Notes under the pieces: generated by a model
Seen by the model: only the letters and a program-made list of their open reading frames with translations
Told to the model about the DNA's origin: nothing
Databases searched by the model: none
In this document: positions 1 to 42,608 of the stretch, piece by piece
Layout of the letters: each line of letters opens with the position of its first letter
How positions within the stretch are numbered: position 1 is the first letter of the stretch
IMG/VR virus record: IMGVR_UViG_3300042565_000181
Coordinates: 1-49,997 of that record
From: a virus
Length of the DNA: 49,997 nucleotides
Direction: 5' to 3' (one strand)
Position numbers and translations under genes: made by a program

Positions 1-309
1 TGCTTGGCTGGCTGTAATTTGCGCGGCGCTTGCGTCTGCTGCGCTGCGCTCTTTGCGGTACGCAATTCCTAAAGTTGGGTTTACGCGAAACAACTGCGCT
101 TCATAGTCGGCAGCGGTTGGGTCTAAGCCACGAAGCGCGTTGCGCTCTTGCATAGCCGCTTGCGCTTCTTGCATCTTCATTGCGTTCATTTCTTGCGCTT
201 GCCGCCCACCTTGAATTTGCTGTATGGCAGCATAGTCAGCCAGCATGTTTGGCTGCTGAATTTCAGGGGCGCGATAGCTCATCGCAATGTTGGGGTTTAC
301 AAGTGCCAT
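1..309 (-). CDS. Ejection (internal virion) protein, copy A, partial at left edge
   Basis: The first 103 codons of a gene run off the left edge, starting at the ATG at 309-307. The N-terminus (MALVNPNIAMSYRAPE...) matches the start of the 469-aa protein at 36339-37748 (MALVDPTIALGFRQPE...): same opening, then a Q/A/M/K-rich, strongly helical and probably coiled-coil stretch. It directly follows the DNA-transfer protein at 319-1044, the same order as in copy B. That order resembles the P22 ejection genes 7-20-16, so a role as a DNA-ejection protein is inferred from position and composition. The C-terminal three quarters lie outside the window. Confidence 0.75.
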   Translation of the reverse strand, partial: MALVNPNIAMSYRAPEIQQPNMLADYAAIQQIQGGRQAQEMNAMKMQEAQAAMQERNALRGLDPTAADYEAQLFRVNPTLGIAYRKERSAADASAAQITASQA

Positions 310-318
310 GATCAATCC

Positions 319-1044
319 TTATGCGTTTGATCCGTATGAAAATCTTGCGTATGGGTCTTGGTAACCAATCGCAGCAGCGCCGCCATCGCTAACGCCGGCT
401 GGCCTATTAAGCATTTGTCGAAATAGCGCATTGCGGTCTTGACCTTGGCCGTAGTTTATGTACTGGCCCAAGCCCTGAGTCAGCGCGTTAACGCCGCCCA
501 TGTAGCCAGAGGCACGGGCCTGGGCGGCTTGAGCGCCGGCTTCGCCTACGTTAGTTGCCATTGTTTGCCCAGCTTGGCCTAACTGACCTACGGAAGTTTG
601 ACCCATACCGGCTAAAGATTGCAGCGGGTTAAGGCGCGCCTGACGCTCGGTCTGGTAGCGATTGAAAGCGTTGGTGTACTCTTGGCTACCCATCTCCTGG
701 CCGTAGCGTTGCGCGGCCTTGAGAGCGCCGCCAGAGATTAGGCCACCGCGTGCAGCAGCTTGACGATCAAGCGCCTTTTGGCCTTCGGACAAACGGAAAC
801 CGTAGCCTGGGTCTGCTTGAAACTCGCTCATGCCAAACGGCGTGTACCTAGACGCTGCTTCCAGTTCTGGCAACGCACGAACACCGGCCTCACGGAACGG
901 GGCTTGCAGTTCAACTTGACGCTCAAACTGTTGCCGTTGAAGTTCAGCCGCACGGTCAGCCGCACTGGCTTGCTTGCGTGCGGCGCTGCTAGCGGCGCCA
1001 GCGCCAAGTATCGCGCTGCCTATGATTGCTGTTTCAATGCCCAT
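319..1044 (-). CDS. DNA transfer / ejection protein (P22 gp7-like position), copy A
   Basis: The product is 241 aa, Ala/Gln/Gly-rich and helical. It begins with a short hydrophobic Gly-Ala segment (residues 3-22), then a charged helix, then the conserved block YTPFG...DPGYxFRLSEGQKALDR (about 67-95) and a GGLISGxALKAA stretch. This block is typical of phage proteins annotated as DNA transfer or pilot proteins. The copy B counterpart is 37750-38499 (249 aa), conserved over the core and divergent at both ends. It probably sits inside the virion and leaves with the DNA to help form a conduit through the host envelope. Family assignment is by pattern; the mechanism is inferred from P22-type phages. 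Confidence 0.75.
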   Translation of the reverse strand: MGIETAIIGSAILGAGAASSAARKQASAADRAAELQRQQFERQVELQAPFREAGVRALPELEAASRYTPFGMSEFQADPGYGFRLSEGQKALDRQAAARGGLISGGALKAAQRYGQEMGSQEYTNAFNRYQTERQARLNPLQSLAGMGQTSVGQLGQAGQTMATNVGEAGAQAAQARASGYMGGVNALTQGLGQYINYGQGQDRNALFRQMLNRPAGVSDGGAAAIGYQDPYARFSYGSNA

Positions 1045-1046
1045 TT

Positions 1047-1406
1047 TTAATTCTCCTTAACCAACATACCGCTAACAGACTCTTTAAACCCAAGCCGTTT
1101 TAAAACATCGTACATGTAGTCATGTCCGGGGGTAACTTTTGTAGTCACTCTACCAGACTGAAAAAAGTTTTTCCACAGACTTTTTGTTAACCACTTTTTG
1201 CGCCACTCTGGCAACACTGAAATGTGTAACTCATCATCTTTTTTGTACACCGCACCAATGATGTCCCCATCGCGTTTAATTGCGCTTATTGTCCAATCTT
1301 TTACCGCAGCGCAATAGTTCTCAAACGACATGGGGGTGCTCCAATCCGTTGCCTCGTAGCCTACCCGAAGCGCTGCATCTCGATCATCTAATAATTGCGT
1401 TGGCAT
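1047..1406 (-). CDS. GNAT-like acetyltransferase-fold protein
   Basis: The frame is open further upstream, but the protein-like part begins at ATG 1406, four bases after the tail-fibre stop (1411-1413), giving 119 aa. A strand pair (DWTISAIKRDGDIIGAVY, then ELHISVLPEWRKKWLT) followed by a helix and a terminal LKRLGFKE resembles the beta4, beta5 and C-terminal parts of small GNAT N-acetyltransferases. I do not see a clean acetyl-CoA-binding Q/RxxGxG/A motif, so activity is uncertain. In copy B the same slot between fibre and DNA-transfer genes holds an unrelated SET-domain protein (38484-39332) plus a small structural gene. Possible roles are modifying a virion or host protein. Confidence 0.55.
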   Translation of the reverse strand: MPTQLLDDRDAALRVGYEATDWSTPMSFENYCAAVKDWTISAIKRDGDIIGAVYKKDDELHISVLPEWRKKWLTKSLWKNFFQSGRVTTKVTPGHDYMYDVLKRLGFKESVSGMLVKEN

Positions 1407-1410
1407 CAGA

Positions 1411-2259
1411 TTATTCCAAAAGCAGGTTGTTGTTGGACGCAGCTTGCATGATGACCCAATTTGTGCCGTCTGACACCATTGTCGCCCAATTTCCCACAAC
1501 ATCCAAGAGAATTGCCGTTCCAGCCGAAGTGCTGTCCAGCGGCACGACATTGCTTGACGCTGACACCAGAAACTGCGGCTGCATATTTTTGAAGGTGACC
1601 TGGCGTCCAGTGTAGGACGATGGCGTTGGCAGGGTGACAGTACAAGTCGAGCCTGACTTGTTGTTGATGACCCAAGACTCGCCATCCGCTAAAGTAAAAT
1701 TTGCAGTCTTGGTGACCGGCGCGGAAGCGGTGCCCGTTGCCCAAGCTGGCACGCCAGCGGTGACGGTTAACACTTGCCCCGTTGTCCCTACCGGCAGTCT
1801 TGTCAGCGTGGTCGTGGTGTTCGCATACAGTAGGTCGCCAACAGCGTATGAGGCAAGCCCCGTGCCGCCATTGACGGCAACCAGCGTGCCAGCAAGCGTT
1901 ACAGCGCCCGTGGTGGCCGTTGCGGGGGTTAGGCCACTGGTGCCGCCCGACCAGCTTAAAACGCCTGAGTTGGCGACAGAGATCGTTCCTGACCCATTGG
2001 TGACGGCAATGCCCGTGCCAGCAGTCAAAGTTCTTAGCGTGTACCCCGTTCCATTGCCGATCAACAACTGGCCGTTGGTGGGGGTAGAACTTAGCCCTGT
2101 GCCGCCGTTGATGACGGCCGTAATTCCTGTGCCATCACCAGTGAGCACATACTGGTTATAGAAAAACCTGTACCACTCCCTAGACATCAGCCCTGTTTTT
2201 GGGTCAATCAACGCAACACGGGGGGCCGTGATTTGCGTGATATTAGGCGTTGTAGCCAT
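1411..2259 (-). CDS. Tail fibre / appendage protein with conserved N-terminal anchor, copy A
   Basis: The product is 282 aa. The first ~40 residues (IDPKTGLMSREWYRFF) match the N-terminus of the 497-aa fibre at 39680-41173 (IDPRTGLMSRQWYRFF). The remainder is low-complexity Gly/Thr/Ala beta sequence with 'GGTGL' repeats, as in phage fibres. The C-terminal part (about 185-282) carries a TFKNMQPQF-type segment and ends in LLLE. The layout suggests a virion-attachment N-terminus with an exchangeable, receptor-facing distal part. The start overlaps the gp10-like stop by one base (TAATG). The copy B fibre is 215 residues longer and differs in the repeat region, as expected for host-range genes. 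Confidence 0.75.
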   Translation of the reverse strand: MATTPNITQITAPRVALIDPKTGLMSREWYRFFYNQYVLTGDGTGITAVINGGTGLSSTPTNGQLLIGNGTGYTLRTLTAGTGIAVTNGSGTISVANSGVLSWSGGTSGLTPATATTGAVTLAGTLVAVNGGTGLASYAVGDLLYANTTTTLTRLPVGTTGQVLTVTAGVPAWATGTASAPVTKTANFTLADGESWVINNKSGSTCTVTLPTPSSYTGRQVTFKNMQPQFLVSASSNVVPLDSTSAGTAILLDVVGNWATMVSDGTNWVIMQAASNNNLLLE

Positions 2260-3707
2260 TATGCGTTGGTGGGGCTAATCAATAATTCAGCGCCCATGAT
2301 GGCCGTTTTAACTGGGTCAGTCATTGACACTTCGTAGACCCGATCCCGCAGCTTAAGCGTCATGCCGAGCCTGCGCCAAAAGACACGGCGGTAGTACTCG
2401 CCAATCTTGCCCATTTTGCTCAAGTGCTCATTTGACCATGTGTGGCCGCCGTCATCCGAAAAGCGCAGCATGATCTCAGGGTCGCTGCCTTGGCCGGTGA
2501 CCAGCCCAGTGCCTGACTCACAGTCCAGTTGTAGGCTGTGTTGCGCCGTGCGCTTGAGGTTGTTTTGACCCGTTGGCAATGCTCTCCATGACCGCAACCA
2601 CTTTTGGATGCCGCCATTGTCAGCGTATACATCAAGGTCAAGGGTATAGATGTTGCCGTTTTCAAAGTCGCCAACTACCGTGTTGCCGCCAAAATTACAT
2701 TGGCAGTTGCTGCGGTGGCGCGTAAATTCGCCGATTGCGGTATTCCAGCCAGCGCGTTCGTGCCACGCTTGCGTAGCCACATCGTAGACCCAAGTGGCGT
2801 TGGCCGAGGGGAATGTCAGCACATAGAAGGCGTGGCCTTCTTGCTGGTAGGTGTAGGCAATGGCGTCCGAGATGTTGCCGTACTGAGCAATGGCGTACTC
2901 AATGGCGTGCGTAGAAACGCGGACGCCAGTGTAGCCATTGGCGCGGTAGACAATGCCCTGCCCACGGGCGTCCGTGCCAAGCCAGAACAGGCCGTTGTCA
3001 AGTTTTGCGATAGAGAACGCGGCTACGCATCCAATTTCGTTAAAAGCGCCTTGGATGCGCGTTAAAGGGAAGTCAGTTTGCCCAGCGTCATACCAGACCT
3101 CAATTGAGTCAGTGCCAAACAGCCATGCCTCGCGGTGGTCTACATTGACGGCAACTAGCCCATCAGGTGAGCCTTCGGCAGATGCAAAATCAAGGGGGTC
3201 AACTGAAGTGCCGTCAAGCAATTGAGTCACCCACACTTTTTGGGAGTCGGGTTCGTTGTAAACAAAGTACCCGTCCAAGTAGCCCACAGTCACGGCGCCC
3301 GTAAAGTCAGGGTCGGTGATCTTGGCAAATACGTTGGTGACTTCGTTATAGATAAACCCGTCAGGATTGCAAGCCAGAAAGATTTGTGTGCCATTGTCAG
3401 CAATCGATACGGGGCCAGTGCCGGTCACCGTGCCCAGCAAAGTGGGCGTAGCGGTCAATCCGGTGACTTTATAGAACTGAGTGCCGGACACAACATAAAA
3501 GTCGCTGCCGTTGGTCTGGTGCGCCCACAGCGCCCGAATTGGGCCAGTGCCTATGGTTTGCTGGAATTTAAGGCCGGGGGCGCGGTTAAGAAACGCCGGT
3601 TCCTTGCCGCCCTCTGGAACGACTTCGGGGAACAAGTTGACCATGCGGTTGTCCGCAGCGTTGATGCTGCGGGCAACGTAGCTTGACCCAAGGATCGGCG
3701 TCTTCAT
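2259..3707 (-). CDS. P22 gp10-like tail hub / packaged-DNA stabilisation protein, copy A
   Basis: The product is 482 aa. The start MKTPILGSSYVARSINAAD followed by NRMVNLFPE...PGL and an all-beta, propeller-like sequence is typical of the phage stabilisation protein family (P22 gp10). Those proteins plug the portal/gp4 channel and carry the tail needle and tailspikes. Conserved late segments include AWHERAGW, HRSNCQCNFGG and WRRLGMTLKLRDRVYEVSMTDPVK. Copy B (41166-42608, 480 aa) is closely similar throughout. The start overlaps the stop of the gp4-like gene (TGATG), as expected for two subunits of one tail hub. Confidence 0.85.
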   Translation of the reverse strand: MKTPILGSSYVARSINAADNRMVNLFPEVVPEGGKEPAFLNRAPGLKFQQTIGTGPIRALWAHQTNGSDFYVVSGTQFYKVTGLTATPTLLGTVTGTGPVSIADNGTQIFLACNPDGFIYNEVTNVFAKITDPDFTGAVTVGYLDGYFVYNEPDSQKVWVTQLLDGTSVDPLDFASAEGSPDGLVAVNVDHREAWLFGTDSIEVWYDAGQTDFPLTRIQGAFNEIGCVAAFSIAKLDNGLFWLGTDARGQGIVYRANGYTGVRVSTHAIEYAIAQYGNISDAIAYTYQQEGHAFYVLTFPSANATWVYDVATQAWHERAGWNTAIGEFTRHRSNCQCNFGGNTVVGDFENGNIYTLDLDVYADNGGIQKWLRSWRALPTGQNNLKRTAQHSLQLDCESGTGLVTGQGSDPEIMLRFSDDGGHTWSNEHLSKMGKIGEYYRRVFWRRLGMTLKLRDRVYEVSMTDPVKTAIMGAELLISPTNA

Positions 3708-4423
3708 CAGTAATTGCCAGCATAGATGTTGAACCGCTGCCGAGTCGCCACAATGGCGTAAGGCATTGACATCACATCGTCAGGGTTGTTGATGCGTTTT
3801 AAGTTGCGCTTACTGGTCATGGCAATGCGCTGCACTTGGGGGCTTGGCTCGACACCAAACTCAGGTGCGATTTCCATTGCCAAGTTGTAGGTGAACGCAC
3901 GCAAGTAGCCTGGCGGGAATAGCAAGTTAGTCACCAGCGTGGCTGGGTTGCTCAATTCTTGCACTGACACAAAATGCCATTCCAGATCGCGTGTAGGTTG
4001 CGGGTAGATCGTCATCGTAACGTCAGGGTAAGTCATGTTTACAAAAATGACTTGCGGATACGTTGACGTTACGGTTTTTACCGCAATACCGTTGTACTGC
4101 TGCTGGTTGATAAACTTGACGCCAAACGACACGTTTGTGCCAGGGTCACGAAAATAAGTTGACTCGTCTAACAGCACGGGGCGCAGCCCTATGAAGTTAC
4201 CAGAAGGGCCAAGCGTGCGAGTAATTTGCCCCGCGGGCCAAGTAAAGGTTTGATCTTGTGTGCAGAATACAGACAGGCGCTCAGTGTTCCATGAGTCAAT
4301 CATCTGATTCATTGCCATCAGACTGTCTTGCATGACAGACGCCGATGACGTTTCGCCTTCAGCTAGCACACCAAGCAGCCGAAGCGCTCTGGTTATCTGA
4401 TCGCCCGCCGTGTAAATCGCCAT
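3707..4423 (-). CDS. P22 gp4-like head-completion / tail accessory protein, copy A
   Basis: The product is 238 aa, beginning with an AGDQITRALRLLGVLAEGE helix, then MNQMIDSWNTERL, and a C-terminal part containing PPGYLRAFTYNLAMEIAPEFG and RINNPDDVMSMPYA. This pattern matches the tail accessory factor family (P22 gp4), which binds the portal ring after packaging and makes the first part of the neck. It lies directly before the gp10-like gene. The copy B counterpart is 42608-43321 (237 aa). Confidence 0.85.
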   Translation of the reverse strand: MAIYTAGDQITRALRLLGVLAEGETSSASVMQDSLMAMNQMIDSWNTERLSVFCTQDQTFTWPAGQITRTLGPSGNFIGLRPVLLDESTYFRDPGTNVSFGVKFINQQQYNGIAVKTVTSTYPQVIFVNMTYPDVTMTIYPQPTRDLEWHFVSVQELSNPATLVTNLLFPPGYLRAFTYNLAMEIAPEFGVEPSPQVQRIAMTSKRNLKRINNPDDVMSMPYAIVATRQRFNIYAGNY

Positions 4424-4425
4424 GA

Positions 4426-4617
4426 TCAGACTCCTTCGGCTACAGCCTTACGTGTGTATTTGCGCTTGACTTCTAGCGCGTTCACCGCTACTTCAGGTTC
4501 TGATGCGGGTGCTTCTGGATTGTAGCGTGTCCAGCCGTGTGTTTCATCAAACACGGCTTCAAGTTCCATAGTGGCGACTTTACGCCCGTGGACGGGATGC
4601 TGAAGATAAATGTTCAT
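4426..4617 (-). CDS. Small conserved virion-region protein, copy A
   Basis: The product is 63 aa from ATG 4617. A longer start at 4644 is possible, but it lies inside a hairpin terminator. The sequence (IYLQHPVHGRKVATME...FDETHGWTRYNPE, then a basic KRKYTRKA tail) is shared with 43323-43523 in copy B. Function unknown. Its fixed position just before the gp4-like gene suggests a small head-tail or regulatory protein. No strong ribosome-binding site is seen. Confidence 0.7.
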   Translation of the reverse strand: MNIYLQHPVHGRKVATMELEAVFDETHGWTRYNPEAPASEPEVAVNALEVKRKYTRKAVAEGV

Positions 4618-4642
4618 AAAAAAAACGGGGGCCGAAGCCCCC
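4618..4642 (-). terminator. Intrinsic terminator, TTCG loop
   Basis: Read on the minus strand: a perfect 6-bp stem GGGGGC/GCCCCC (4642-4637 with 4632-4627) closed by a TTCG tetraloop, then G and eight T (4625-4618). This is a textbook rho-independent terminator after the 155-aa gene. It probably reduces transcription into the tail genes. Confidence 0.8.
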
Positions 4643-4648
4643 ATTTGG

Positions 4649-5116
4649 TTAGGATGCTACCAATGGAACAGAATACCACTGGGTGGTGGAAGATGCCACC
4701 AACAATGAACTGGTAAGGTTTGTGATGCTATACGCACCGTTGGCCGCAACTGCATTAACTGCCCCGCCAGTGGCGGGGTAGATATTCAGCGCTCCGGCAG
4801 CGGTGTTTTTAACAATAACTACCATACCAGCAACAGCCGTAGGCAATCTAACGCCTTTTGTGCCGTCAGCAGCAGAGACGACGTTCAAACCTTCAGCTAG
4901 TGCAGCAGCATTGCCTTGAGTACTGCCAGCCGCCGCAACAGCAGCAACAGGAAGACGAATGGCGCCGGTTGAAGTGCCAGCTATGGTCGTAGCAGTTATG
5001 GTCGTAGCAGTTATGGTCGTAGCGGTTACCGCTTGCAACGCTGACGCGCCGGTGACGGTTACGCTATCAAATTCAGGGTCGCTATACGCGACGCCTACAG
5101 CTTTAGTATTTGGCAT
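4649..5116 (-). CDS. Probable head decoration / virion protein, copy A
   Basis: The product is 155 aa, Ala/Thr/Val/Gly-rich beta sequence. The N-terminus (NTKAVGVAYSDPEFD) is shared with the 210-aa protein in the same slot of copy B (43668-44300) and with the 150-aa protein at 12591-13043. It is followed by a TATTI repeat encoded by a 15-bp tandem repeat, then a beta-rich C-terminal domain ending in a TTQWYSVP-type motif common in phage virion proteins. Its slot between coat and gp4-like genes suggests a capsid-associated protein; this is inference. Confidence 0.65.
   Translation of the reverse strand: MPNTKAVGVAYSDPEFDSVTVTGASALQAVTATTITATTITATTIAGTSTGAIRLPVAAVAAAGSTQGNAAALAEGLNVVSAADGTKGVRLPTAVAGMVVIVKNTAAGALNIYPATGGAVNAVAANGAYSITNLTSSLLVASSTTQWYSVPLVAS
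4983..5027. repeat. 15-bp tandem repeat, three units, in coding sequence
   Basis: The plus-strand unit ATGGTCGTAGCAGTT occurs three times head to tail, with one substitution in the last unit. It encodes repeated TATTI residues in the 155-aa virion protein. Copy B lacks it. It looks like slippage-generated length variation in a linker. Confidence 0.85.
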
Positions 5117-5135
5117 GGTGTTCCTTTAGAAAGAC

Positions 5136-5149
5136 GGGGCCGAAGCCCC
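5136..5149 (-). terminator. TTCG hairpin between virion genes, copy A
   Basis: On the minus strand GGGGC-TTCG-GCCCC is followed by GTCTTTCT (5135-5128), a weak T tract. The same hairpin and flanks recur at 44320-44333 in copy B. It is probably a leaky terminator or an mRNA 3' end stabiliser. Confidence 0.6.
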
Positions 5150-5156
5150 ATCAGAT

Positions 5157-5555
5157 TTAGGCAATGCGGTACGCAGTCCAAGTACCATCGCCGGTTTTAC
5201 GAGCGAGGAACCGGCCCGAAGTGTTTTCCAACACAACAGCGTTGCCCACAATTGTCCAACCAGTACCAACAGCCAAAGTGACTTGGTAAGAAAGGTCAAC
5301 CACCACAATAGCAAACTCAAAAGCAGCGTTTACTTTTGATGCAGCCGTGATGTCAGCTTCCACCAATGCCACGGTGGGCAGTGTGGCGGTAATGTCAGCA
5401 GCAGAGTCGCTGGTAAACAAACCGTTTGACAGTTGGGCTGCGGTCAAAGTTACGTCAGCAGTCAGGGCCGTGGGGGCGCCCTGAACCGACAGAACAGCTT
5501 CACCGATATTGCCATCACCAAGCTGGTAGCCACCAGCGCCATTAGGGAGTGCCAT
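5157..5555 (-). CDS. Small virion protein downstream of coat gene, copy A
   Basis: The product is 132 aa beginning MALPNGAGGYQLGDGNIGE. A compact beta-rich domain follows, ending ARKTGDGTWTAYRIA. Copy B has a 133-aa homologue (44341-44742), with both termini nearly identical and the middle divergent (about residues 28-105). Its position just after the coat gene and flanking TTCG hairpins suggest high expression, as for a decoration protein, but no family was recognised. Confidence 0.7.
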   Translation of the reverse strand: MALPNGAGGYQLGDGNIGEAVLSVQGAPTALTADVTLTAAQLSNGLFTSDSAADITATLPTVALVEADITAASKVNAAFEFAIVVVDLSYQVTLAVGTGWTIVGNAVVLENTSGRFLARKTGDGTWTAYRIA

Positions 5556-5585
5556 GATAATTTCCTTAAAAAAGATTTAAAAAAC

Positions 5586-5599
5586 GCCCCCGAAGGGGC
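5586..5599 (-). terminator. Intrinsic terminator after coat gene, copy A
   Basis: On the minus strand GCCCC-TTCG-GGGGC is followed by G and six T (5584-5579), immediately after the coat stop codon (5607-5609). A strong hairpin after the most abundant virion protein would protect or end the coat transcript. Copy B keeps the hairpin (44775-44788) but has lost most of the T run. Confidence 0.7.
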
Positions 5600-5606
5600 A
5601 TTAGGT

Positions 5607-6818
5607 TTAGCCCCAGATGCGGCAGGCCATTTGTGGACGGATGGTGCTGAAGCCGTACAGAACGTCAATACGGCAAGGCATACGGTCGTTGTTGATGTCG
5701 TACTGACGAACAACGCGCAAGCTGATACCGTTGTGAACGGCACGAGCAGCCATGTCAACGCCTTGTGGCAGCAACAGGTCAGCAGTAGCGAACGTGATGG
5801 CGTCTTTGTGGTAGACCAAGTTCTGAGCGTACTGAGTAGAAGCAGTGCCCACAAAGGTCACAACGCCACCAGTTGCAGGCAGCACATCAACAGTAGCCAG
5901 AGCGTGGTTGGCCGAGTACATCGGAGCAACAGTCACAGTCCAAGTGCCACCCACGGCAGTAGCCGTAGTCAAAGCCACAAATTGGAACAAAGAACCAGTA
6001 GACTCACGGGTCTGTGGGTTGACAGCATTGCAAGCACTGACCGTGAACACGTCACCAGCATTGATTGTGGTGACTACAGAACCTTGTTCCAACAGAATGG
6101 TAGAAGCGCCTTCGGCAGTAACGCCTGGGGTCTTAACCAGTGTGGACGCGGTGGCGCTACGTGAGCCAGTGGTGTGCTGCTTGATCGACTGAGACATGTT
6201 GACTTCATCAAAGCCCAACACGCCAGTGCCCATCATGCCGTTGCGAAACTGCTTGGAGATAGTGTCGGTCGGATTGAACAGACCTTTCATACCTTCAACC
6301 AGACCAGCGTTGGCTGCTGGGTTAACAGTAGCGTAACGTGGCGACATCACAGCAGCGTTTTCGTTCAGCTTTTGTTGGGCTTGGAGCAGCACCAGCGAAG
6401 TTGAAGGAGTAGTGCCAGGCGTGCCAACGGTATTACCGATGGTTTTGTACGCATTGGCAACGTCAGCATCAATGCTGGAGGCCAACTGGCTAATACGCGG
6501 CTTGAGAACACGCTCTGCGAAGTCGTCCAATTGCATGGTCAATTCAGCAGATGTGAAGTTGACACCGATGTGCTTTTGGGTAGAAACAGCCAGAGTGGTG
6601 AACTGCTCGTTGTCGTCCTGAACTTGCAGGGCGGCGCCGTCAGTAACCAGAGCGCGGTCAGGCAGACGGATACGCAGGGTAGAGCCAATCTTAGCGCCTT
6701 CAACAGCAAAGCTGTCGTCATACTGGCGATTGACGTTACGGGTAAGAACAAGGTTATTCTCCAGAATTTCCAGAGCCTTGCGGGTGATCATGTCGATCGT
6801 AAGAATGCTATTAGACAT
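5607..6818 (-). CDS. Major coat protein, P22 gp5-like, copy A
   Basis: The product is 403 aa, close to P22 coat length (430). The N-terminal helix ITRKALEILENNLVLTRNVNR, the RLPDR strand and the E-loop-like segment followed by AELTMQLDDFAERVLKP match the P22 coat family (HK97 fold). The C-terminus contains VVRQYDINNDRMPCRIDVLYG. Compared with copy B (44797-46008) there are 21 substitutions. Sixteen lie in residues 239-329, where the P22 family carries its inserted surface I-domain, and none lies after 329. An AGGA ribosome-binding site precedes the ATG. Confidence 0.92.
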   Translation of the reverse strand: MSNSILTIDMITRKALEILENNLVLTRNVNRQYDDSFAVEGAKIGSTLRIRLPDRALVTDGAALQVQDDNEQFTTLAVSTQKHIGVNFTSAELTMQLDDFAERVLKPRISQLASSIDADVANAYKTIGNTVGTPGTTPSTSLVLLQAQQKLNENAAVMSPRYATVNPAANAGLVEGMKGLFNPTDTISKQFRNGMMGTGVLGFDEVNMSQSIKQHTTGSRSATASTLVKTPGVTAEGASTILLEQGSVVTTINAGDVFTVSACNAVNPQTRESTGSLFQFVALTTATAVGGTWTVTVAPMYSANHALATVDVLPATGGVVTFVGTASTQYAQNLVYHKDAITFATADLLLPQGVDMAARAVHNGISLRVVRQYDINNDRMPCRIDVLYGFSTIRPQMACRIWG

Positions 6819-6839
6819 TTGTAAATTTCCTAAAAAAAG

Positions 6840-7610
6840 TTAGCGGATACGTTGTGCTTCCCACTTCTTCATCTGCCTTACACGTTCAGCATCAATCCAC
6901 TGCGAGGCCGTCATGCTCTTAATGGAGCGCGGGTCTGTAGTGTCAAGTGCTGGCGAACCAGAGGCTCGGGCGGTAACAGGTGAAATCGGCGTTGGCGCTG
7001 ACGTTGTTCGTTTGACCGGGGGTTCTGCGGCTAATTTAGCCTCAATCTTCCCAATCTCTTTCGCCTGACCGAGTGGCGTCATACGTGCGATGCGTTCCGC
7101 GTCTTTGGGGTTAGAGCCGAGATAGTAAGCTAACTCAGGCCCAATGTCCGAAGACTGGATCGTTTCGGCCATCACGTTCGTGATCGGCAGTTTTGGGTTG
7201 TAGGCGACTTGTTCAAAGTCATCGTACTTGTCCCGCGCTGCTTCCTCAAGTTCCTGATAGCTTTCGAGAATAGCAGAGTGCTGCTTGGCGGCTTCACGCT
7301 TTGCAATCAGTTCTTCAGCCTTCTGTAGCGTCAACGCTTCCGTGTACGCTTCGGTAGACTCAAACTGATCAGCGGATGCTGCGGGGGCGGCTCTCAGCGT
7401 CTGTTGTTCAGACTGGCGCTGTGCTTGATCTCGTTCCCACTTACGTTGCTCTCTTGCGAGGCGTTTGCCAATAGCTGCGTCAAGTTCCTCTTGCGAGAAT
7501 GTCTTGCTTACTGCTTCTGGCGTTTCCGGCGTTTGAACTTCAGTCGCAGGTGCAGCCGTTGCTTCCTGTTCTGGCACGGGTAGTGACTCCGCTGGTACTT
7601 CTTCTAACAT
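6840..7610 (-). CDS. Scaffolding protein, copy A
   Basis: The product is 256 aa, highly charged. It has an acidic Pro/Glu/Ala-rich disordered N-terminus (1-45), a long helical Gln/Arg/Glu middle (about 45-130), a linker, and a basic C-terminus (MKKWEAQRIR). Position directly upstream of coat, composition and the basic helical tail match P22-type scaffolds, whose C-terminal helix-turn-helix binds coat. Copy B counterpart: 46028-46792. Its leader carries two conserved inverted repeats (see 7615-7646). Confidence 0.82.
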   Translation of the reverse strand: MLEEVPAESLPVPEQEATAAPATEVQTPETPEAVSKTFSQEELDAAIGKRLAREQRKWERDQAQRQSEQQTLRAAPAASADQFESTEAYTEALTLQKAEELIAKREAAKQHSAILESYQELEEAARDKYDDFEQVAYNPKLPITNVMAETIQSSDIGPELAYYLGSNPKDAERIARMTPLGQAKEIGKIEAKLAAEPPVKRTTSAPTPISPVTARASGSPALDTTDPRSIKSMTASQWIDAERVRQMKKWEAQRIR

Positions 7611-7614
7611 TTAT

Positions 7615-7646
7615 GAATCCTTGGATTCCTCGGTCAACCTGGCCGA
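7615..7646 (-). promoter_or_regulatory. Scaffold leader with two inverted repeats, copy A
   Basis: Just before the scaffold ATG (7610) lie GAATCC-AA-GGATTC (7628-7615) and, upstream, a 7-bp arm pair TCGGCCA-GGT-TGACCGA (7646-7630) with one mismatch. Both recur at 46797-46828 in copy B. The GAGGA/AAGGA ribosome-binding sequence lies within or next to the first palindrome, so folding could hide it. P22 scaffold is known to autoregulate after transcription; an analogous control here is inference. Confidence 0.5.
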
Positions 7647-7678
7647 TACGGTTTTTACAAATATATCAGATATTTGGG

Positions 7679-8020
7679 CTAAAGACTAACTTCAGCCCAA
7701 CTCAATGTGCTTTCGTCCCAGCGATACTTTTTGTCATCAGCCGGAAGTGGAACTGGCGCAAGCCATTGGCAGGTTTCTTCTACCAAAGTCCAACTTGGGA
7801 ATGGCTGGGGTGAAATAAAAGCGTCTCTGGTGCTGTCATAGGTGTAGCCAATGCCAGCGTAGTTTTTGCGGATTCTTGCGTTGTAGGATGTGCGCTTGCA
7901 AATTTGGCTGCGGGTTTCGCCGTAAAACTGTTCCCAATCTTGGGACAGGTCGGTTTCATCTTTGCCAACAATGACTTCTGTAACGATGTTGTTTTCGTCT
8001 AAAAATGCATAGTGTGCCAT
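7679..8020 (-). CDS. Conserved aquatic-phage protein, tail-associated (copy A only)
   Basis: The product is 113 aa: MAHYAFLDENNIVTEVIVG... KRTSYNARIRKNYAGIGYTYD...DAFISPQPFPSW...KKYRWDESTLSWAEV. This pattern is very common in cyanophage and pelagiphage structural regions, usually near fibre genes. Function is unproven. It starts by a TAATG overlap with the Gly-rich gene, so the two are translationally coupled. Absent from copy B. Confidence 0.7.
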   Translation of the reverse strand: MAHYAFLDENNIVTEVIVGKDETDLSQDWEQFYGETRSQICKRTSYNARIRKNYAGIGYTYDSTRDAFISPQPFPSWTLVEETCQWLAPVPLPADDKKYRWDESTLSWAEVSL

Positions 8021-8952
8021 TAGAAAGTCACCGTTCCTGTTCCAGCAGTAAAGGTATAGACCTTGTAGCCGCCCGAAGTTACTGGGCCTGAGTACGTCAA
8101 TCCACCGCTAATGGTTGTAATGTCAGCAAAAGTGTCGGCGTACCGAATAATGACAATGCCTGAACCGCCGTTGCCGCCAATGTATCCAACAGTTGTGTTG
8201 TTTGCGCCATCGGTATTGCCAGCACCACCGCCGCCCGTGTTGACTGTTCCAGCGTTGGCTGGGTTTGCTGAACTTGCAGTGCCGCCGCCCCCTGCTCCAC
8301 CAGTACCGTTAGTACCGCCAGAAGCAGGTCTTCCCGCACCGCCGCCGCCACCAGCATAAGTTACAGACGAGCCGCTAATACTAGACGCGCTACCATCGCC
8401 GCCGTTACCGCCACTTGTAGCGGTTGCATTGCTACCTACTGCGCTAGCACCGCCGCCGCCAGAACCGCCGTCATCAAGAGATGTGCCAGCATTATTTCCT
8501 TGAGACGGAGATGTAGATGGCGTATTCCCAAGGCCACCTGAGTTTGTTGTAAGCGAACCACCGCCACTACCACCACTACCACCAACTCTGCCACTTGGTG
8601 GGCTACCACCGCTAGCGGAAGTTGCGTTGTAACAAGCACCAAAACCGCCACCAGCAGAGGTAATCGTGCTAAATACAGAATCAGAACCGTTGGTTGCGTT
8701 ATACCCTGTTGAGGTATCGCCACCTGCACCACCTGCGCCGCCTGCGCCAATTGTCAGTGTGTAGGGGGTGCCTCCTGATATGGCTAAAGAATTTGCTGTG
8801 CGGTAGCCACCAGCACCGCCGCCAGCGCCAGCATTTCCTGCGACAGACGCCCCGCCGCCACCGCCACCGCCAGCAACTACTAGGTAGTCAACGGCGGTTG
8901 GTGCTGGCAAAGCCGCAACGCCAGCCAAAAAGAAGTTTTTGGCGGCAAACAT
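8020..8952 (-). CDS. Glycine-rich tail adhesin-like protein (copy A only)
   Basis: The product is 310 aa from ATG 8952, which overlaps the preceding stop by one base; the in-frame start at 8988 lies inside the upstream gene. After a short N-terminus (MFAAKNFFLAG) and the DYLVVAGGGGGGG motif, residues about 35-265 are polyglycine-rich runs separated by short loops, then a beta C-terminus ending FTAGTGTVTF. Polyglycine sandwich domains occur in phage receptor-binding adhesins (T4-like gp38 type) and in Gly-rich tail proteins. A surface adhesin role is inferred. It has no counterpart in copy B. Confidence 0.65.
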   Translation of the reverse strand: MFAAKNFFLAGVAALPAPTAVDYLVVAGGGGGGGASVAGNAGAGGGAGGYRTANSLAISGGTPYTLTIGAGGAGGAGGDTSTGYNATNGSDSVFSTITSAGGGFGACYNATSASGGSPPSGRVGGSGGSGGGSLTTNSGGLGNTPSTSPSQGNNAGTSLDDGGSGGGGASAVGSNATATSGGNGGDGSASSISGSSVTYAGGGGGAGRPASGGTNGTGGAGGGGTASSANPANAGTVNTGGGGAGNTDGANNTTVGYIGGNGGSGIVIIRYADTFADITTISGGLTYSGPVTSGGYKVYTFTAGTGTVTF

Positions 8953-9413
8953 TATGGTGTGTACCCTTGGGCAATCGAGCCGTACCAATTAGTGCCATCA
9001 GCAATGAAGGTCAAAATGTCCATCTTGCCGGCCGTTGCTGTGATGGTTGGTGCGCCAGCCGTACCAAACTTTACGCCGGTAAATGTTGCTGTGCCGTTGC
9101 CAGTGGTTGCAGCCTGTTTGAGCAGCAGCACAAAGGACTTGCCAGCCGTAGCAGTTGGCATGGTGAATGTGCAGGCTGTGGATGCTGTCAAGGTTGCCGT
9201 TTGCACCGTGCCGTTGGTCAGCGCCAAGGTTGATGCGGTGGTCACCGTGCCGATAGCAACAACGGCCTCAACATAGTTGGTCACCGTTGGGTTGGTAAAC
9301 AGGCCGTTAACGCTCACCTTGACAGTTGCGCTGCTTTGCACAATCGGCAATACCTCAGTGCCCGCAAGGGGGACAGACGCGCTTGCTAGCGCAGAGATTT
9401 TCTTGTCAGCCAT
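8952..9413 (-). CDS. Tail/virion protein (MADKKISAL type), copy A only
   Basis: The product is 153 aa. The N-terminus MADKKISALASASVPLAGTE is a widespread opening of phage fibre-associated proteins. A small all-beta domain follows, ending ILTFIADGTNWYGSIAQGY, the same kind of ending as other virion proteins here. It is part of the copy A-specific block 7679-9880. Confidence 0.6.
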   Translation of the reverse strand: MADKKISALASASVPLAGTEVLPIVQSSATVKVSVNGLFTNPTVTNYVEAVVAIGTVTTASTLALTNGTVQTATLTASTACTFTMPTATAGKSFVLLLKQAATTGNGTATFTGVKFGTAGAPTITATAGKMDILTFIADGTNWYGSIAQGYTP

Positions 9414-9416
9414 TTA

Positions 9417-9581
9417 TCACTCCAAAAGAATTAAGCCGCCATCTTCTTGCACAAGATTGTCGCCAATTTCGGTCAAAAGATTGCCCTGCACCGTTGCACT
9501 GGCATACCCAGACAAAAGGGAAATAATGTTGCCAATACCTATGGCAACACCGTTCCGAATAGGGATGCCAAAGTAACTCAT
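9417..9581 (-). CDS. Small 54-aa protein (copy A only)
   Basis: ATG 9581 overlaps the stop of the 100-aa gene (ATGA). The product starts MSYFGIPIRNGVAIGIGN and ends QEDGGLILLE. The LLLE-type ending also occurs in the 282-aa fibre. Coupled start and clean codon reading support a real gene. Function unknown. Confidence 0.6.
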   Translation of the reverse strand: MSYFGIPIRNGVAIGIGNIISLLSGYASATVQGNLLTEIGDNLVQEDGGLILLE

Positions 9582-9880: not shown

Positions 9881-9889
9881 AATGTTTCC

Positions 9890-12450: not shown

Positions 12451-12451
12451 G

Positions 12452-12589: not shown

Positions 12590-12590
12590 T

Positions 12591-28598: not shown

Positions 28599-28635
28599 AA
28601 CGAGATGACATCATCCGCATGGCGCGGGAGTCTGG
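28585..28635 (+). repeat. 51-bp direct repeat, unit 2
   Basis: Second copy of the repeat at 28268-28318. Here its ATG (28595) is the actual start of the 130-aa gene. Confidence 0.8.
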
Positions 28636-37749: not shown

Positions 37750-38499
37750 TTAGTATTGACCTTCACCAAAAGTCATGCCGGTTCTACCACCAGCAGCAGG
37801 GAACAAACGATTTATCAACTGATTTTGCGTGTACATGTTAGCCAAACTAGACGCGCCACCTGTGAGCGCATTGGCCTGTCCGATATAGCCCGACGCGCGG
37901 GCTTGCCCCGCAGCGCCCATAGCCGCACCGGCTTGCGAACCATATGCGCCCAGCGCCGCATTTGCGCCAGTCGTCATAGACTCACCGGCGCTGCCAAGCG
38001 CTTGCGTTGCGCTCTGACCGACACCGGCCAACGATTGCAGCGGGCCGAGCTTGGCAGAGCGTTCAGCTTGGTAACGGTTAAAAGCGTTTTGGTATTCTTG
38101 CGAACCCATGTCTTGACCGTACCGCGTAGCTGCCTTCAATGCGCTGCCAGAAATTAGACCGCCGCGCGCCGCTGCTGACCGATCAAGTGCTTTCTGGCCC
38201 TCAGACAACCGAAACGCATATCCTGGGTCTGCTTGAAATTGTTCCGTGCCGAAAGGCGTGTAATCAGACGCAGCCGTTAGCTTATTAAGCGCGCCAATAC
38301 CGGCTTGACGCCAAGGTTCTTGAAGCGCCGTTTGACGTTCAAATTGTTTTTCGCCTGCTTCAATTTGGCGTTCTGCAATTAGCAGGCTAAGATCGCCCGC
38401 TTTTTCCGCTGCCTGTGCTTGCGCGCTGGCGGCTTTGCTAGACGCATTGCTGCCAATTACTGAGCTAACTACTATAGCTCCGGCTACCCATCCAGACAT
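37750..38499 (-). CDS. DNA transfer / ejection protein, copy B
   Basis: The product is 249 aa with GGAG before ATG 38499. Hydrophobic N-terminus (WVAGAIVVSSVIGS), then the conserved block YTPFGTEQFQADPGY and GGLISGSALKAATRYGQDMG. Homologue of 319-1044. The stop of the SET gene overlaps its start by 16 bases. P22 gp7-like position. Confidence 0.75.
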   Translation of the reverse strand: MSGWVAGAIVVSSVIGSNASSKAASAQAQAAEKAGDLSLLIAERQIEAGEKQFERQTALQEPWRQAGIGALNKLTAASDYTPFGTEQFQADPGYAFRLSEGQKALDRSAAARGGLISGSALKAATRYGQDMGSQEYQNAFNRYQAERSAKLGPLQSLAGVGQSATQALGSAGESMTTGANAALGAYGSQAGAAMGAAGQARASGYIGQANALTGGASSLANMYTQNQLINRLFPAAGGRTGMTFGEGQY

Positions 38500-39332
38500 G
38501 GCAATTCTCCTTGTAACGCGAGTCCAAAATTGACTCTCATTGATGCCCGATAGTCCACCAACAATTCTGTGCCTATCGGGATTGTACGCAAAGCAACGGC
38601 ATAAATGTCATCGCTATCTTTTTTTGGCTCTACATTGGCTTCAAGCGAATGGTTTATAAACCGCCCGCCTGGCGTTCGTTTGCCATTTAATCGACCGGCG
38701 CAAACCACTTCGCCGGCGACAAACGCTTTTGTAGCGAACAGACCTTTGCCGTGTATGGGCGAGTCTTTTAGTTCCACAAAGTATTCCGGCGGCATTTCAA
38801 TCTGATCTGATTCAATTTGGACAATCTTGTCCATTTCAGCCTGCGTCATGCCTATTTGATGCAAAAACGCGCCGTAGTCTACTTGCGCTTTTTGAACCGC
38901 TGTCCGGCTGTCAGCCAACCCGCAGGCTGGTATTTCATACAGTCTTTCTTCAACAATCCCTATGTCGGTGCAGTTGTCGGGGTTTGGGTAAATGTCTGTC
39001 CACACCACTTCATCATCAAACACACGCCCCGCCCGCTGCATCCCTGCTGGCGCATCAAACGCGCATGGCGCGGTGAGGACTTTTACGCCGTTGTCCGTGT
39101 TTACCGCAATCGTGCCCTTGTCAAGCCGCACTTTGTACGGCGTCTTATGCGCCGCGCCTGTTAAGACAGTCCACGGCGGGATGGTGATAGTTCGCTCGTA
39201 CACACCGTCAAAAAAAGTGTGCTGGGTGCTGATGTCAGCCTGCGGCAATTTTAGCAACTCATCTTGCAATACCCGCACTTTGTCCGGCGTAATATCCGCA
39301 AGATCAAAGGCATTGTTGCAAGCTAATTCCAT
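38484..39332 (-). CDS. Cupin-SET fusion protein (putative protein-lysine methyltransferase)
   Basis: The product is 282 aa. Residues about 45-120 form a cupin-like beta barrel pattern (ITIPPWTVLTG, VRLDKGTIAV, CAFDAPAGMQRAGRVF). Residues 184-266 are a SET domain: HGKGLFATK (194-202), GRFINHS (223-229), the AVALRTIPIG strand and ELLVDY (256-261). All core SET motifs are visible, so activity is plausible; substrate unknown. It lies among virion genes in the slot where copy A has a GNAT-like gene. TAATG coupling to the 111-aa gene. Confidence 0.82.
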   Translation of the reverse strand: MELACNNAFDLADITPDKVRVLQDELLKLPQADISTQHTFFDGVYERTITIPPWTVLTGAAHKTPYKVRLDKGTIAVNTDNGVKVLTAPCAFDAPAGMQRAGRVFDDEVVWTDIYPNPDNCTDIGIVEERLYEIPACGLADSRTAVQKAQVDYGAFLHQIGMTQAEMDKIVQIESDQIEMPPEYFVELKDSPIHGKGLFATKAFVAGEVVCAGRLNGKRTPGGRFINHSLEANVEPKKDSDDIYAVALRTIPIGTELLVDYRASMRVNFGLALQGELPCLDG

Positions 39333-39667
39333 TACGATATTTCCCGCCCACTGACGCGCATGTTGATGCTGGCGGCAGCGCTGGCAATAGTTGAAATAAA
39401 TCCATCAACGGGAATGATCTGCCCCACTAGCTCAGGGAAGGTGTACACCTCTGATGGCGACAACGACTTTAGCTTTGTGATCAGATTTAAGTTGCCGGCT
39501 GTGCCGGCTGGCGTTACCAAGTTGACGCTGATCGTTGCAGTGCTAGCGCTAAAGTTGGTGGCCGTGAACTTGTCAATGATCGTAGTGACATTGTTGGCGG
39601 TGTACTGCGTTGTTTGAGAATCCTCAACAATTTTTGCAGGCACTAAATTTTTGGCCGTTACAGTCAT
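39332..39667 (-). CDS. Small virion-region protein, 111 aa (copy B only)
   Basis: MTVTAKNLVPAKIVEDSQTT, then a compact beta sandwich (ATNFSASTATISVNLVTPAG...) ending SINMRVSGREIS. The pattern is typical of small phage tail proteins. No counterpart in copy A. Stop-start overlap with the SET gene suggests co-translation. Confidence 0.6.
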   Translation of the reverse strand: MTVTAKNLVPAKIVEDSQTTQYTANNVTTIIDKFTATNFSASTATISVNLVTPAGTAGNLNLITKLKSLSPSEVYTFPELVGQIIPVDGFISTIASAAASINMRVSGREIS

Positions 39668-39679: not shown

Positions 39680-41173
39680 TTAGAGAACAACCCAGCGGGA
39701 ACCGGAAGATACAGTCACTACGACGCCGCTGGCGACTGTCATTGGGCCAGCCGACACACCAGCACTCCCGCTGGCGATAGTATAGCTTGTAGACACCGTT
39801 GTGCTGTTAATTGTGATGCCGTTGCTGGAGATGTGCGCGGGCGCGGTAAATTCGCCCGTGGAGGGCTTGTAGAGCAGCTTGGCGTTGCCCGTGTACAGCG
39901 TGGCAGCCGTGCCAGAGGTAGCCGTCAAAAAGGTCGGGTACAGGTTTGTGGCCGTTGTGGTGTCGTTGGCAATCGTCAGGGACGCGCCCACAGACGCCCA
40001 TTTGACGCCTGCCGCCGTAGTCGAATCGGCCACCAGCGCGTAGGTGTCCGTCCCGACAGCCAGTCGGACATTGCCCGTACCGTTGCGAACGATCAGATCG
40101 CCCTTGGTAGTGGTGGGCGACAAAGCATCAAAGCCCGCTGTGGCCGTTGTCTGGCCTGTGCCGCCATTGGCAAAGGCTACCACGCCTGTGACGTTTGCGG
40201 CCGTTCCTGTGGTGTTCTGGTTAAGCGTAGGCACATCGGCAGCCACAATAGCGCGGAATGTGGGCACGCCTGGCGCGCCGTTGGGCGCAGCCAAAAAGGT
40301 GTTAGCCGTCTGGGAAGCAAAATCCGATGGCGTAACGGCCAGCGTGCCACCCAGCGTCAAGCTGCCAGAACTGGTGACAGTGCCTGTTAGGGTTAACCCG
40401 CTAACGGTGCCCGCACCCGAAACAGACGTGACTGTACCTTGTGGATTGGCGGCTGTAGTGATTGTAGTCACGCGGCCATAGGTGTCCACCGTAACCACGG
40501 GGATTAGCGCAGACGAGCCGTAAGTGCCGGCGGTAACGATACCGCTAGCCAAGTCAATCGCCGGCGTCGCGCCGCCTGTACTGGTTATATTGCCAGTAGT
40601 TCCGCTGACCGATGTGACCGTGCCGCTGCCAGTGCCCGCGCCGATGGCCGTGCGAAAGGTTGCCGCGTCAAGCGTGGAGACAGTGTTGTCGGCATTGATG
40701 CGGACAAAAGTGATTGCGCTGGGGTTAGGCAGGGTAAAGAAGTTGCTGCCAACAGTGGTAGCCCCAAGCGATGTACGGCCAGTAGCCACAACCAAGTTGG
40801 TCGCCCCGCCGTCCCATTGCTGGCGCTCGGCATACGCGGTGTCCCACTCAGTTTGCTTGGCCGTCGTAGGAATGGAATACCCAGCGCCGTAGGCCACGGC
40901 CAGCGTGCCTGCCGAAGTGATCGGCGAGCCGGTGACAGTCAGGCCCGTAGGCACCGTCATAGCGACAGAGGTCACCGTACCAAACGCGCTCTCGCCGCCG
41001 CCACTCGGAGGGCCAATTTGCAATTCTTCCAGCGATGTCGGGTTGTTGCCGCCGCCGGTCAGGTTGAACAGGTTTAGAAAAAAGCGATACCACTGGCGCG
41101 ACATCAACCCCGTGCGTGGATCGATAAGATCGACACGCGACGAGGGAATGTTTGTTATGTTGACTTCAGACAT
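39680..41173 (-). CDS. Tail fibre / appendage protein, copy B
   Basis: The product is 497 aa. The conserved anchor (SRVDLIDPRTGLMSRQWYRF) is shared with copy A, then long Gly/Thr/Val repeats (GTVTSVSG, TLGGTLAVTPSDF, FANGGTGQTT) as in phage fibres, and a C-terminal strand ending SSGSRWVVL. The start overlaps the gp10-like stop by 8 bases. The longer distal part differs from copy A, suggesting a different receptor. Confidence 0.78.
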   Translation of the reverse strand: MSEVNITNIPSSRVDLIDPRTGLMSRQWYRFFLNLFNLTGGGNNPTSLEELQIGPPSGGGESAFGTVTSVAMTVPTGLTVTGSPITSAGTLAVAYGAGYSIPTTAKQTEWDTAYAERQQWDGGATNLVVATGRTSLGATTVGSNFFTLPNPSAITFVRINADNTVSTLDAATFRTAIGAGTGSGTVTSVSGTTGNITSTGGATPAIDLASGIVTAGTYGSSALIPVVTVDTYGRVTTITTAANPQGTVTSVSGAGTVSGLTLTGTVTSSGSLTLGGTLAVTPSDFASQTANTFLAAPNGAPGVPTFRAIVAADVPTLNQNTTGTAANVTGVVAFANGGTGQTTATAGFDALSPTTTKGDLIVRNGTGNVRLAVGTDTYALVADSTTAAGVKWASVGASLTIANDTTTATNLYPTFLTATSGTAATLYTGNAKLLYKPSTGEFTAPAHISSNGITINSTTVSTSYTIASGSAGVSAGPMTVASGVVVTVSSGSRWVVL

Positions 41174-42608
41174 TGGTCGGCGTCACATAAACTTCTGCGC
41201 CTACGATTGCAATCTTTACCGGATCAGTGCCTGACACCTCATACACGCGGTCACGCAGCTTGAGCGTCATGCCCAACCGACGCCAAATGACGCGCTTAAA
41301 ATACTGGCCGATCTTGCCAATCGACTGCCAGTATTCATTTGACCAAGTGTGCCCGCCGTCATCAGACCAGCGCAACATGACTTGTGGGTCGCTGCCTTGA
41401 CCGTTATTGATGCCTACGCCTGCCTCGCAATCAAGCTGAAGGGTGTGCTGCGAGGTTCGCTTGAGGTTGTTTTGGCCGGTAGGGATAGCCCGCCACGACC
41501 GCAGCCACTTTTGGATGCTGCTGTTGTCAGCGTACACATCCAAGTCAAAAGTGTAGATGTTGCCGTTTTCGTAGTCGCCCACGATGATGTTGCCGCCAAA
41601 GTTACACTGACAATTGCTGCGGTGCCGCATAAATTCGCCATTGTTCCAGCCCGCACGCTCATGCCATGCTTGCGTGGCTACGTCGTACACCCAAGTGGCG
41701 TTGCCGTTCGGGAAGGTCAGCACATAAAAGGCGTGGCCTTCTTGCTGGTAGGTGTAGGCTACAGCGTCGGATATGTTGCCGTACTGAGCAATGGCGTACT
41801 CAATGGCGTGCGTAGACACTCGCTGGCCGGTGTAGCCGTTGGCCCGATAGACGATACCTTGGCCTCGGGCGTCAGTGCCCAGCCAAAACAGGCCGTTGTC
41901 CAGTTTGGCAATAGAAAAAGCCGCCGCGCAACCAATCTCGTTAAAAGCGCCTTGGATGCGCGCCAGCGGAAAGTCGGCCAAACCGGCATCGTACCAAACC
42001 TCAACAGAGTCAGTGCCAAACAGCCAAACTTCGCGGTGATCAACAATCAGACCGACCAAGCCGTCGGGTGAGCCTTCAGCGCTGGCAAAGTCTAACGGGT
42101 CAACTTGAGTGCCGTCCAATAGTTGAGTTACCCACACTTTTTGACTGTTCGGCTCGTTAAAAACGAAGTAGCCATCCAAGTAGCCAACAGTCACCGCGCC
42201 TGGAAAGTCAATGTCAGTGATTTGAGCAAACGTGTTTAGCGTTTCGTTGTAGATGTAGCTGTCGGGGTTGCAGGCGATAAACAACTGCGTGCCGTTGTCG
42301 GCAATGGATACTGGGCCAGTGCCAGTGATAGCGCCCAGCAGCGTAGGCGTGCCGGTCAGGCTGCTTACCTTAAAAAACTGTAGACCGGACGCGACATAGA
42401 AGTCAGACCCGTTGGTCTGGTGCGCCCATAGGCCGCGAACAGGGCCAGTGCCGACTGTCTGAAGGAAATTCAAACCAGGGCAGCGCGACAGAAAACCCGC
42501 CTCCTTGCCACCTTCGGGGATGACTTCGGGGAACAGGTTGACCATGCGGTTGTCGGCAGCATTGACGCTGCGGGCAACATATGATGAGCCAAGAATTGGC
42601 GTCTTCAT
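41166..42608 (-). CDS. P22 gp10-like tail hub protein, copy B
   Basis: 480 aa, start MKTPILGSSYVARSVNAAD, closely matching 2259-3707 over its full length, including AWHERAGW, HRSNCQCNFGG and RLGMTLKLRDRVYEVSGTDP. Same overlap with the gp4-like gene. Tail hub or packaged-DNA stabilisation role by family. Confidence 0.85.
   Translation of the reverse strand: MKTPILGSSYVARSVNAADNRMVNLFPEVIPEGGKEAGFLSRCPGLNFLQTVGTGPVRGLWAHQTNGSDFYVASGLQFFKVSSLTGTPTLLGAITGTGPVSIADNGTQLFIACNPDSYIYNETLNTFAQITDIDFPGAVTVGYLDGYFVFNEPNSQKVWVTQLLDGTQVDPLDFASAEGSPDGLVGLIVDHREVWLFGTDSVEVWYDAGLADFPLARIQGAFNEIGCAAAFSIAKLDNGLFWLGTDARGQGIVYRANGYTGQRVSTHAIEYAIAQYGNISDAVAYTYQQEGHAFYVLTFPNGNATWVYDVATQAWHERAGWNNGEFMRHRSNCQCNFGGNIIVGDYENGNIYTFDLDVYADNSSIQKWLRSWRAIPTGQNNLKRTSQHTLQLDCEAGVGINNGQGSDPQVMLRWSDDGGHTWSNEYWQSIGKIGQYFKRVIWRRLGMTLKLRDRVYEVSGTDPVKIAIVGAEVYVTPTNV

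What the first reader, a model, noticed from the sequence alone, without database searches (positions are those of the whole stretch)
1047..1406. Swappable protein-modification slot: GNAT-like in copy A, SET in copy B
Between the fibre gene and the DNA-transfer gene, copy A holds a 119-aa GNAT-like gene while copy B holds the 111-aa structural gene plus cupin-SET. Two unrelated enzyme folds, both acting on Lys or amino groups, in the same slot of two related phages suggest a locus for post-translational modification of a tail or ejection protein, or of a host target.
Basis: inference. Interest (0 to 1): 0.7.

Follow-up and report, generated by a model that had tools for sequence, protein, structure and literature searches.

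The report
GNAT-fold phage assembly-factor gene slot
A small phage gene that looks like an acetyltransferase is most likely an inactive enzyme fold reused as a virion-assembly helper, the distant counterpart of P22 gene 14 and T7 gene 13, and in sister phages its place just before the DNA-injection gene is usually taken by a cupin protein.

Summary
Copy A has a 119-aa gene (1406→1047) packed between the fibre gene and the gp7-like ejection gene. Copy B has a 111-aa gene plus a cupin-SET protein in the same slot. The 119-aa protein is a conserved family (dN/dS about 0.1) with a predicted GNAT fold (AlphaFold pLDDT 85; the 50 best PDB matches are all GNATs). The modification-enzyme reading is weaker: in 28 of 31 non-redundant homologues the acetyl-CoA loop RxxGx(G/A) reads RxxWxT, and the catalytic tyrosine is absent in all 31.

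The slot is known under other names. P22 gene 14, T7 gene 13 and the Roseophage SIO1 acetyltransferase sit in the same place. Profile comparison links the 119-aa family to P22 gp14 (E 1e-5) and to slot GNATs (E 2e-6), well above shuffled controls. The predicted P22 gp14 structure is itself a clear GNAT (E 4e-8).

In 85 slots chosen only by the upstream neck gene, 55 hold a cupin (5 with SET), 10 a GNAT fold, none both. Best reading: a degenerate GNAT acting as a morphogenesis factor for ejection or neck proteins, alternating with a cupin protein; SET is an optional add-on of the cupin.

The parts
1047..1406 (-). 119-aa GNAT-fold protein (the finding)
319..1044 (-). gp7-like DNA-ejection protein of copy A, downstream neighbour
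   Evidence: phrog_598 E 3e-40; weak Pfam P22_gp7 E 0.004
1411..2259 (-). fibre gene of copy A, upstream neighbour
   Evidence: phrog_31660 tail fiber E 6e-9
2259..3707 (-). head closure Hc3 (P22 gp10-like) of copy A, the survey anchor
   Evidence: phrog_578 E 3e-133
38484..39332 (-). cupin-SET protein of copy B, alternative occupant of the slot
   Evidence: Pfam SET E 1.5e-9; phrog_34170 E 2e-33 and phrog_12032 'short tail fiber' E 2e-22
39332..39667 (-). 111-aa gene of copy B between fibre and cupin; common in both slot types
   Evidence: 71 relatives among the first 141 distinct slots
37750..38499 (-). gp7-like DNA-ejection protein of copy B
   Evidence: phrog_598 E 7e-30
39680..41173 (-). 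fibre gene of copy B
   Evidence: clusters with the copy A fibre family
41166..42608 (-). head closure Hc3 of copy B
   Evidence: phrog_578 E 7e-134

Best explanation
The 119-aa protein is a GNAT-fold virion morphogenesis factor, the counterpart in these P22-like phages of P22 gp14 and, by position and fold, of T7 gp13. Shown: the predicted fold, the fixed place between the neck/fibre genes and the first ejection gene, remote profile similarity to P22 gp14 and to slot GNATs, and absence of the canonical acetyl-CoA loop and catalytic tyrosine. Inferred: it is made late with the head and neck proteins and binds a newly made partner, most likely the adjacent gp7-like ejection protein or a neck protein, using the old substrate groove. 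It would keep that partner competent for loading, or stabilise the neck, without acetylating it. In most sister phages a cupin protein stands in its place, sometimes with an added SET domain.
For: AF2 model pLDDT 85; the 50 best PDB hits are all GNATs, TMq 0.57-0.70; the viral library also returns T7-gp13-type proteins ('Protein inside capsid A' of Dickeya phage Ninurta, E 0.015, prob 0.95; Klebsiella P510 internal core protein, E 0.017). P22 gene order 10-26-14-7-20-16; APSE-1, Brookers and phiSG1 have the same order. T7 order 12-13-14-15-16; SIO1 tail appendage - acetyltransferase - gp26.1; ct2os315 stabilization protein - GNAT - next gene. hhalign against the gp14 family: prob 81%, E 1.2e-5, score 37.3 (60 column-shuffled nulls max 21.6, reversed 9.0); against slot GNATs: prob 89.5%, E 2e-6, score 41.6 (null max 15.5); control families E 0.3-0.96. 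P22 gp14 model pLDDT 90, matches GNATs at E 4e-8. Loop position 4 is W here and Y or H in most of the gp14 family. Gene 14 is annotated 'virion stability factor'. [quoted passage not shown] GNAT-like was the last slot gene in 38 of 38 slots where it was called.
Against: No match to Pfam PF11039 or PHROG 651 (the gp14 families) by hmmscan. No significant sequence link to T7 gp13, and gp14 does not match the slot GNATs or gp13 directly by profile. No functional data on this family. 14 of 85 Hc3-anchored slots have none of the known occupants, so the function is not needed in every phage of the group or is met elsewhere. A GNAT with an unusual loop may still bind CoA.
Confidence: 0.62

Rival explanations
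1. Active N-acetyltransferase that modifies a tail or ejection protein. It would acetylate a lysine or the N terminus of the neighbouring ejection protein, and cupin-SET would methylate its counterpart in copy B.
For: GNAT fold; SET motifs look intact in copy B (Pfam E 1.5e-9); clear Pfam GNATs sit in the same slot in SIO1, Vibrio phage 1.209 and ct2os315; an Asp/Asn-hydroxylase-like gene sits in the slot of L200.
Against: The CoA loop glycine is W in 28 of 31 and the Tyr general acid is absent in 31 of 31. Most alternative occupants are cupins without SET. P22 gp14, its best-matching gene-order counterpart, also lacks the canonical loop.
Confidence: 0.17
2. Accessory host-takeover effector: a GNAT acting on a host target, as phiKMV-like Rac is reported to act on RNA polymerase, carried in the late operon by chance.
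For: Phage GNATs with host targets exist (Rac, abstract of PMC7552054, listed). Not every relative has the gene.
Against: Fixed last position before the ejection gene in all 38 slots tested, overlap or near-zero spacing with structural genes, and counterparts in P22 and T7 that are assembly genes.
Confidence: 0.1
3. Minor structural protein: it and the cupin are alternative small virion (fibre-tip or neck) components, and the GNAT fold serves only as a scaffold.
For: The cupin alternative carries tail-fibre family names and is annotated as an unknown-function structural gene in Shewanella phage X14. The two occupants never occur together.
Against: The T7 gp13 homologue is not among the virion proteins named for phage Psa17.
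Confidence: 0.11

Closest known systems
P22 gp14 (PF11039 DUF2824, phrog_651; 'head morphogenesis', 'virion stability factor')
   Same: Same gene slot (neck/needle - gene - gp7 ejection), predicted GNAT fold, no canonical CoA loop (an aromatic or His at loop position 4 in most members), remote profile similarity E 1e-5
   Different: 119 against 151 aa; not detected by the Pfam or PHROG family models; W72 and T74 nearly invariant in this family
T7 gp13 (PF11090, phrog_308)
   Same: Same place between the nozzle gene and the first core/ejection protein; gp13-type proteins appear among its fold matches
   Different: No significant sequence similarity
Roseophage SIO1 / Zobellviridae slot acetyltransferase (phrog_1249)
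   Same: Same slot, GNAT; profile E 2e-6 to the slot-GNAT set; PMC6775973 already proposed that the SIO1 gene corresponds to T7 gp13
   Different: SIO1 has clear Pfam GNAT matches and keeps the Tyr; the 119-aa family does neither
Cupin 'short tail fiber / tail fiber adhesin' (phrog_12032, phrog_24280; with SET phrog_34170)
   Same: Occupies the same last place before the ejection gene in sister phages
   Different: Unrelated cupin family; never found beside the GNAT-like gene

Membership tests
GNAT superfamily | GNAT alpha/beta fold | tested here: met
   predicted structure
GNAT superfamily (active enzyme) | Acetyl-CoA loop Q/R-x-x-G-x-G/A | tested here: not met
   R-x-x-W-x-T in 28 of 31
GNAT superfamily (active enzyme) | Tyr general acid four residues before G of the LGF motif | tested here: not met
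   L, F, M, C or A in 31 of 31; some true GNATs use other residues
GNAT superfamily | Passes a Pfam GNAT cut-off | tested here: not met
   best Pfam match 12.9 bits against cut-off 27
P22 gp14 / DUF2824 | Passes the Pfam or PHROG family model | tested here: not met
   no PF11039 or phrog_651 match
P22 gp14 / DUF2824 | Gene order Hc3 - needle/fibre - gene - gp7-like ejection protein | tested here: met
P22 gp14 / DUF2824 | Remote profile homology above chance | tested here: met
   hhalign score 37.3 against null maximum 21.6
P22 gp14 / DUF2824 | Loss gives unstable or defective virions | not testable with these tools
   only the record label 'virion stability factor'
T7 gp13 | Sequence homology | tested here: not met
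T7 gp13 | Position between nozzle and first core protein, with gp13-type proteins among fold matches | tested here: met
SET methyltransferase (copy B gene) | GxG, NHS and DY motifs | tested here: met
   GKGLFA, RFINHS, ELLVDY in the translation; Pfam SET E 1.5e-9

The most novel reading that the evidence does not exclude
The slot before the first ejection gene is a modification locus after all: GNAT, cupin-SET and the hydroxylase-like neighbour modify the ejection protein of their own phage, and the GNAT-like family uses a rebuilt, non-canonical CoA site.
Probability: 0.12. Interest if true: 0.8.

Novelty: new variant of a known kind. Interest (0 to 1): 0.5.

Why it matters
The evidence joins three genes that carry different names (P22 gene 14 with an 'unknown function' Pfam model, T7 gene 13, marine-phage 'acetyltransferases') into one hypothesis: a GNAT fold reused in podovirus assembly next to the ejection machinery. 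That makes the unexplained role of P22 gp14 and T7 gp13 testable, and warns against reading such genes as metabolic or host-modifying acetyltransferases, as has been done for marine phages (PMC6918029).

Tried and rejected
My first slot survey under-counted GNAT-like genes, because their open frame runs back into the fibre gene and was dropped as overlapping; one search replaced it with profile-based calling, and its numbers are the ones to use. Direct sequence homology to T7 gp13 was tried by HMMER and profile-profile comparison and failed, so the T7 link rests on position and fold only. PDB sequence search found only weak matches (best RibT E 0.15). A search for gp14-type genes in 398 genomes found none. 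DNA near the gene holds no tRNA or Rfam RNA. I rejected tandem prophage as the likely source of copies A and B (see full report).

Full report
What is there. The window is a whole IMG/VR record of 49,997 bases. The gene at 1047-1406 reads on the minus strand, starts with ATG, codes 119 aa, begins 4 nt after the fibre gene and ends 2 nt before a gp7-like ejection gene. In copy B the same interval holds a 111-aa gene and a 282-aa protein with an N-terminal cupin-type part (tail-fibre families) and a C-terminal SET domain.

Is it a real gene. Single-sequence search found 55 homologous loci in viral contigs, 38-100% identical over the set aligned, and the profile search 239 candidate stretches. 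dN/dS against relatives is 0.03-0.12 where synonymous sites are not saturated. Two loci in bacterial assemblies also carry it (Henriciella and Pseudooceanicola MAGs). It is a conserved, selected gene.

Fold. Sequence models give only hints (Pfam Acetyltransf_7 E 0.15, phrog_1249 acetyltransferase E 0.013). An AlphaFold2 model from 25 window/IMG/VR sequences has pLDDT 85 and pTM 0.70. The 50 best PDB matches are all GNAT acetyltransferases, led by CBU0801 and archaeal Ard1, with E down to 5e-4 and TMq 0.57-0.70; rmsd is high (4-7), so the match is to the fold and not to one enzyme. Among viral predicted structures the nearest are unnamed phage proteins; T7-gp13-type proteins appear at E 0.015-0.017.

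Is it an enzyme. Aligned with GNATs, the segment ELHISVLPEWRKKWLTKSL is motif A and the C-terminal RLGF is the end of motif B. In 31 homologues clustered at 80% the loop glycine position is W in 28 and never G, the second position is T in 28, and the tyrosine position is L, F, M, C or A in all 31. Both hallmarks of the usual acetyl-CoA mechanism are missing. This is evidence against ordinary acetyl transfer, not proof, since GNATs tolerate variation and no binding was measured.

Where the slot is known. In P22 the order is head closure gene 10, needle 26, gene 14, ejection genes 7-20-16; APSE-1, Brookers and phiSG1 are the same. In T7 it is nozzle gene 12, gene 13, core genes 14-15-16. In Roseophage SIO1 it is tail appendage, acetyltransferase, gp26.1; the cobavirus authors already proposed that this GNAT corresponds to T7 gp13 (PMC6775973). 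In ct2os315 a GNAT follows the stabilization protein directly. So the copy A arrangement is an old podovirus layout and not a special feature of this contig.

Relatedness. Profile-profile comparison of 31 GNAT-like sequences with nine gp14 sequences gives prob 81%, E 1.2e-5, score 37.3; with five slot GNATs prob 89.5%, E 2e-6, score 41.6. Three unrelated slot families give E 0.3-0.96. Sixty column-shuffled versions reach at most 21.6 and 15.5, reversed versions 9.0 and 14.0. T7 gp13 gives nothing. gp14 and the slot GNATs do not match each other directly, so the 119-aa family stands between them. As an independent test I predicted P22 gp14 itself from IMG/VR copies: pLDDT 90, pTM 0.85, and its 50 best PDB matches are all acetyltransferases or annotated relatives of them at E 4e-8 to 1e-6. 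Of the papers held, two contain the word DUF2824; I did not read them, so I cannot say that this fold assignment is new, and Pfam may already group it so.

Who occupies the slot. With profile-based calling over 196 distinct slots: GNAT-like 86, cupin 75, cupin with SET 9, C06 (phrog_21390, unknown) 6, other GNAT 2, gp14-like (Pseudomonas phage PAE2, E 3e-4) 1, none of these 17; no slot has two of them. Many of these loci were fetched through the GNAT-like or cupin protein itself, so the totals are not frequencies. In the 85 slots reached only through the upstream Hc3 gene: cupin 50, cupin with SET 5, GNAT-like 8, C06 6, GNAT 2, none 14. GNAT fold (10) and cupin (55) never meet; a Fisher test gives p about 1e-5, but related genomes are not independent and each slot usually has one such gene, so the number only describes the pattern. 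One slot (L200) carries an Asp/Asn-hydroxylase-like gene beside a cupin.

Mechanism. [quoted passage not shown] The proteome paper of T7-like phage Psa17 names eleven structural proteins and gp13 is not among those named in the passages read (PMC4517105). The most likely mechanism is therefore a non-catalytic GNAT fold that binds a neighbouring late protein during assembly. The partner is an inference: the ejection protein is favoured because the gene is always next to it.

Copies A and B. The start and end of the contig are two diverged versions of one late region (70-88% DNA identity), and the distance between the two portal gene starts is 37.2 kb, one genome length for relatives of 36-38 kb. 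The simplest reading is a contig that runs 1.3 times round a circularly permuted genome and joins two co-occurring variants. None of ten window ORFs scanned is an integrase, so tandem prophages look less likely, but this was not tested with reads.

Verdict. The modification-locus idea is not supported for the GNAT-like gene and remains open for cupin-SET. The useful result is the link to P22 gp14 and the alternation with a cupin protein.

Noticed in passing
window 1-12776 and about 37200-49997: Two diverged versions (70-88% DNA identity) of the same late region at the two contig ends, 37.2 kb apart: probably a contig running 1.3 times round a permuted genome and merging two co-occurring phage variants.
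   Followed up: partly
window 7671-9877: Copy A has about 2.2 kb between scaffold and portal-side genes where copy B has about 0.27 kb; it includes a glycine-rich 322-aa protein (phrog_2295, E 2e-49).
   Followed up: no
window 4611-5085 and 43514-44269: The genes between capsid and neck differ between copies A and B, another possible swap site.
   Followed up: no
window 28984-29616 (+): 210-aa gene matching phrog_3704 ferredoxin (E 1e-73), a host-takeover or metabolic candidate.
   Followed up: no
window 28268-28318 and 28585-28635: 51-bp direct repeat, 96% identical.
   Followed up: no
L200:3345-3932: Asp/Asn beta-hydroxylase-like gene (Pfam E 2e-6) in the slot beside a cupin.
   Followed up: no
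L193:4810-5280: Family C06 (phrog_21390, unknown function) is a third alternative occupant, found in 6 slots.
   Followed up: partly
L348:4912-5367: P22 gp14 (DUF2824) is predicted to have a GNAT fold.
   Followed up: yes
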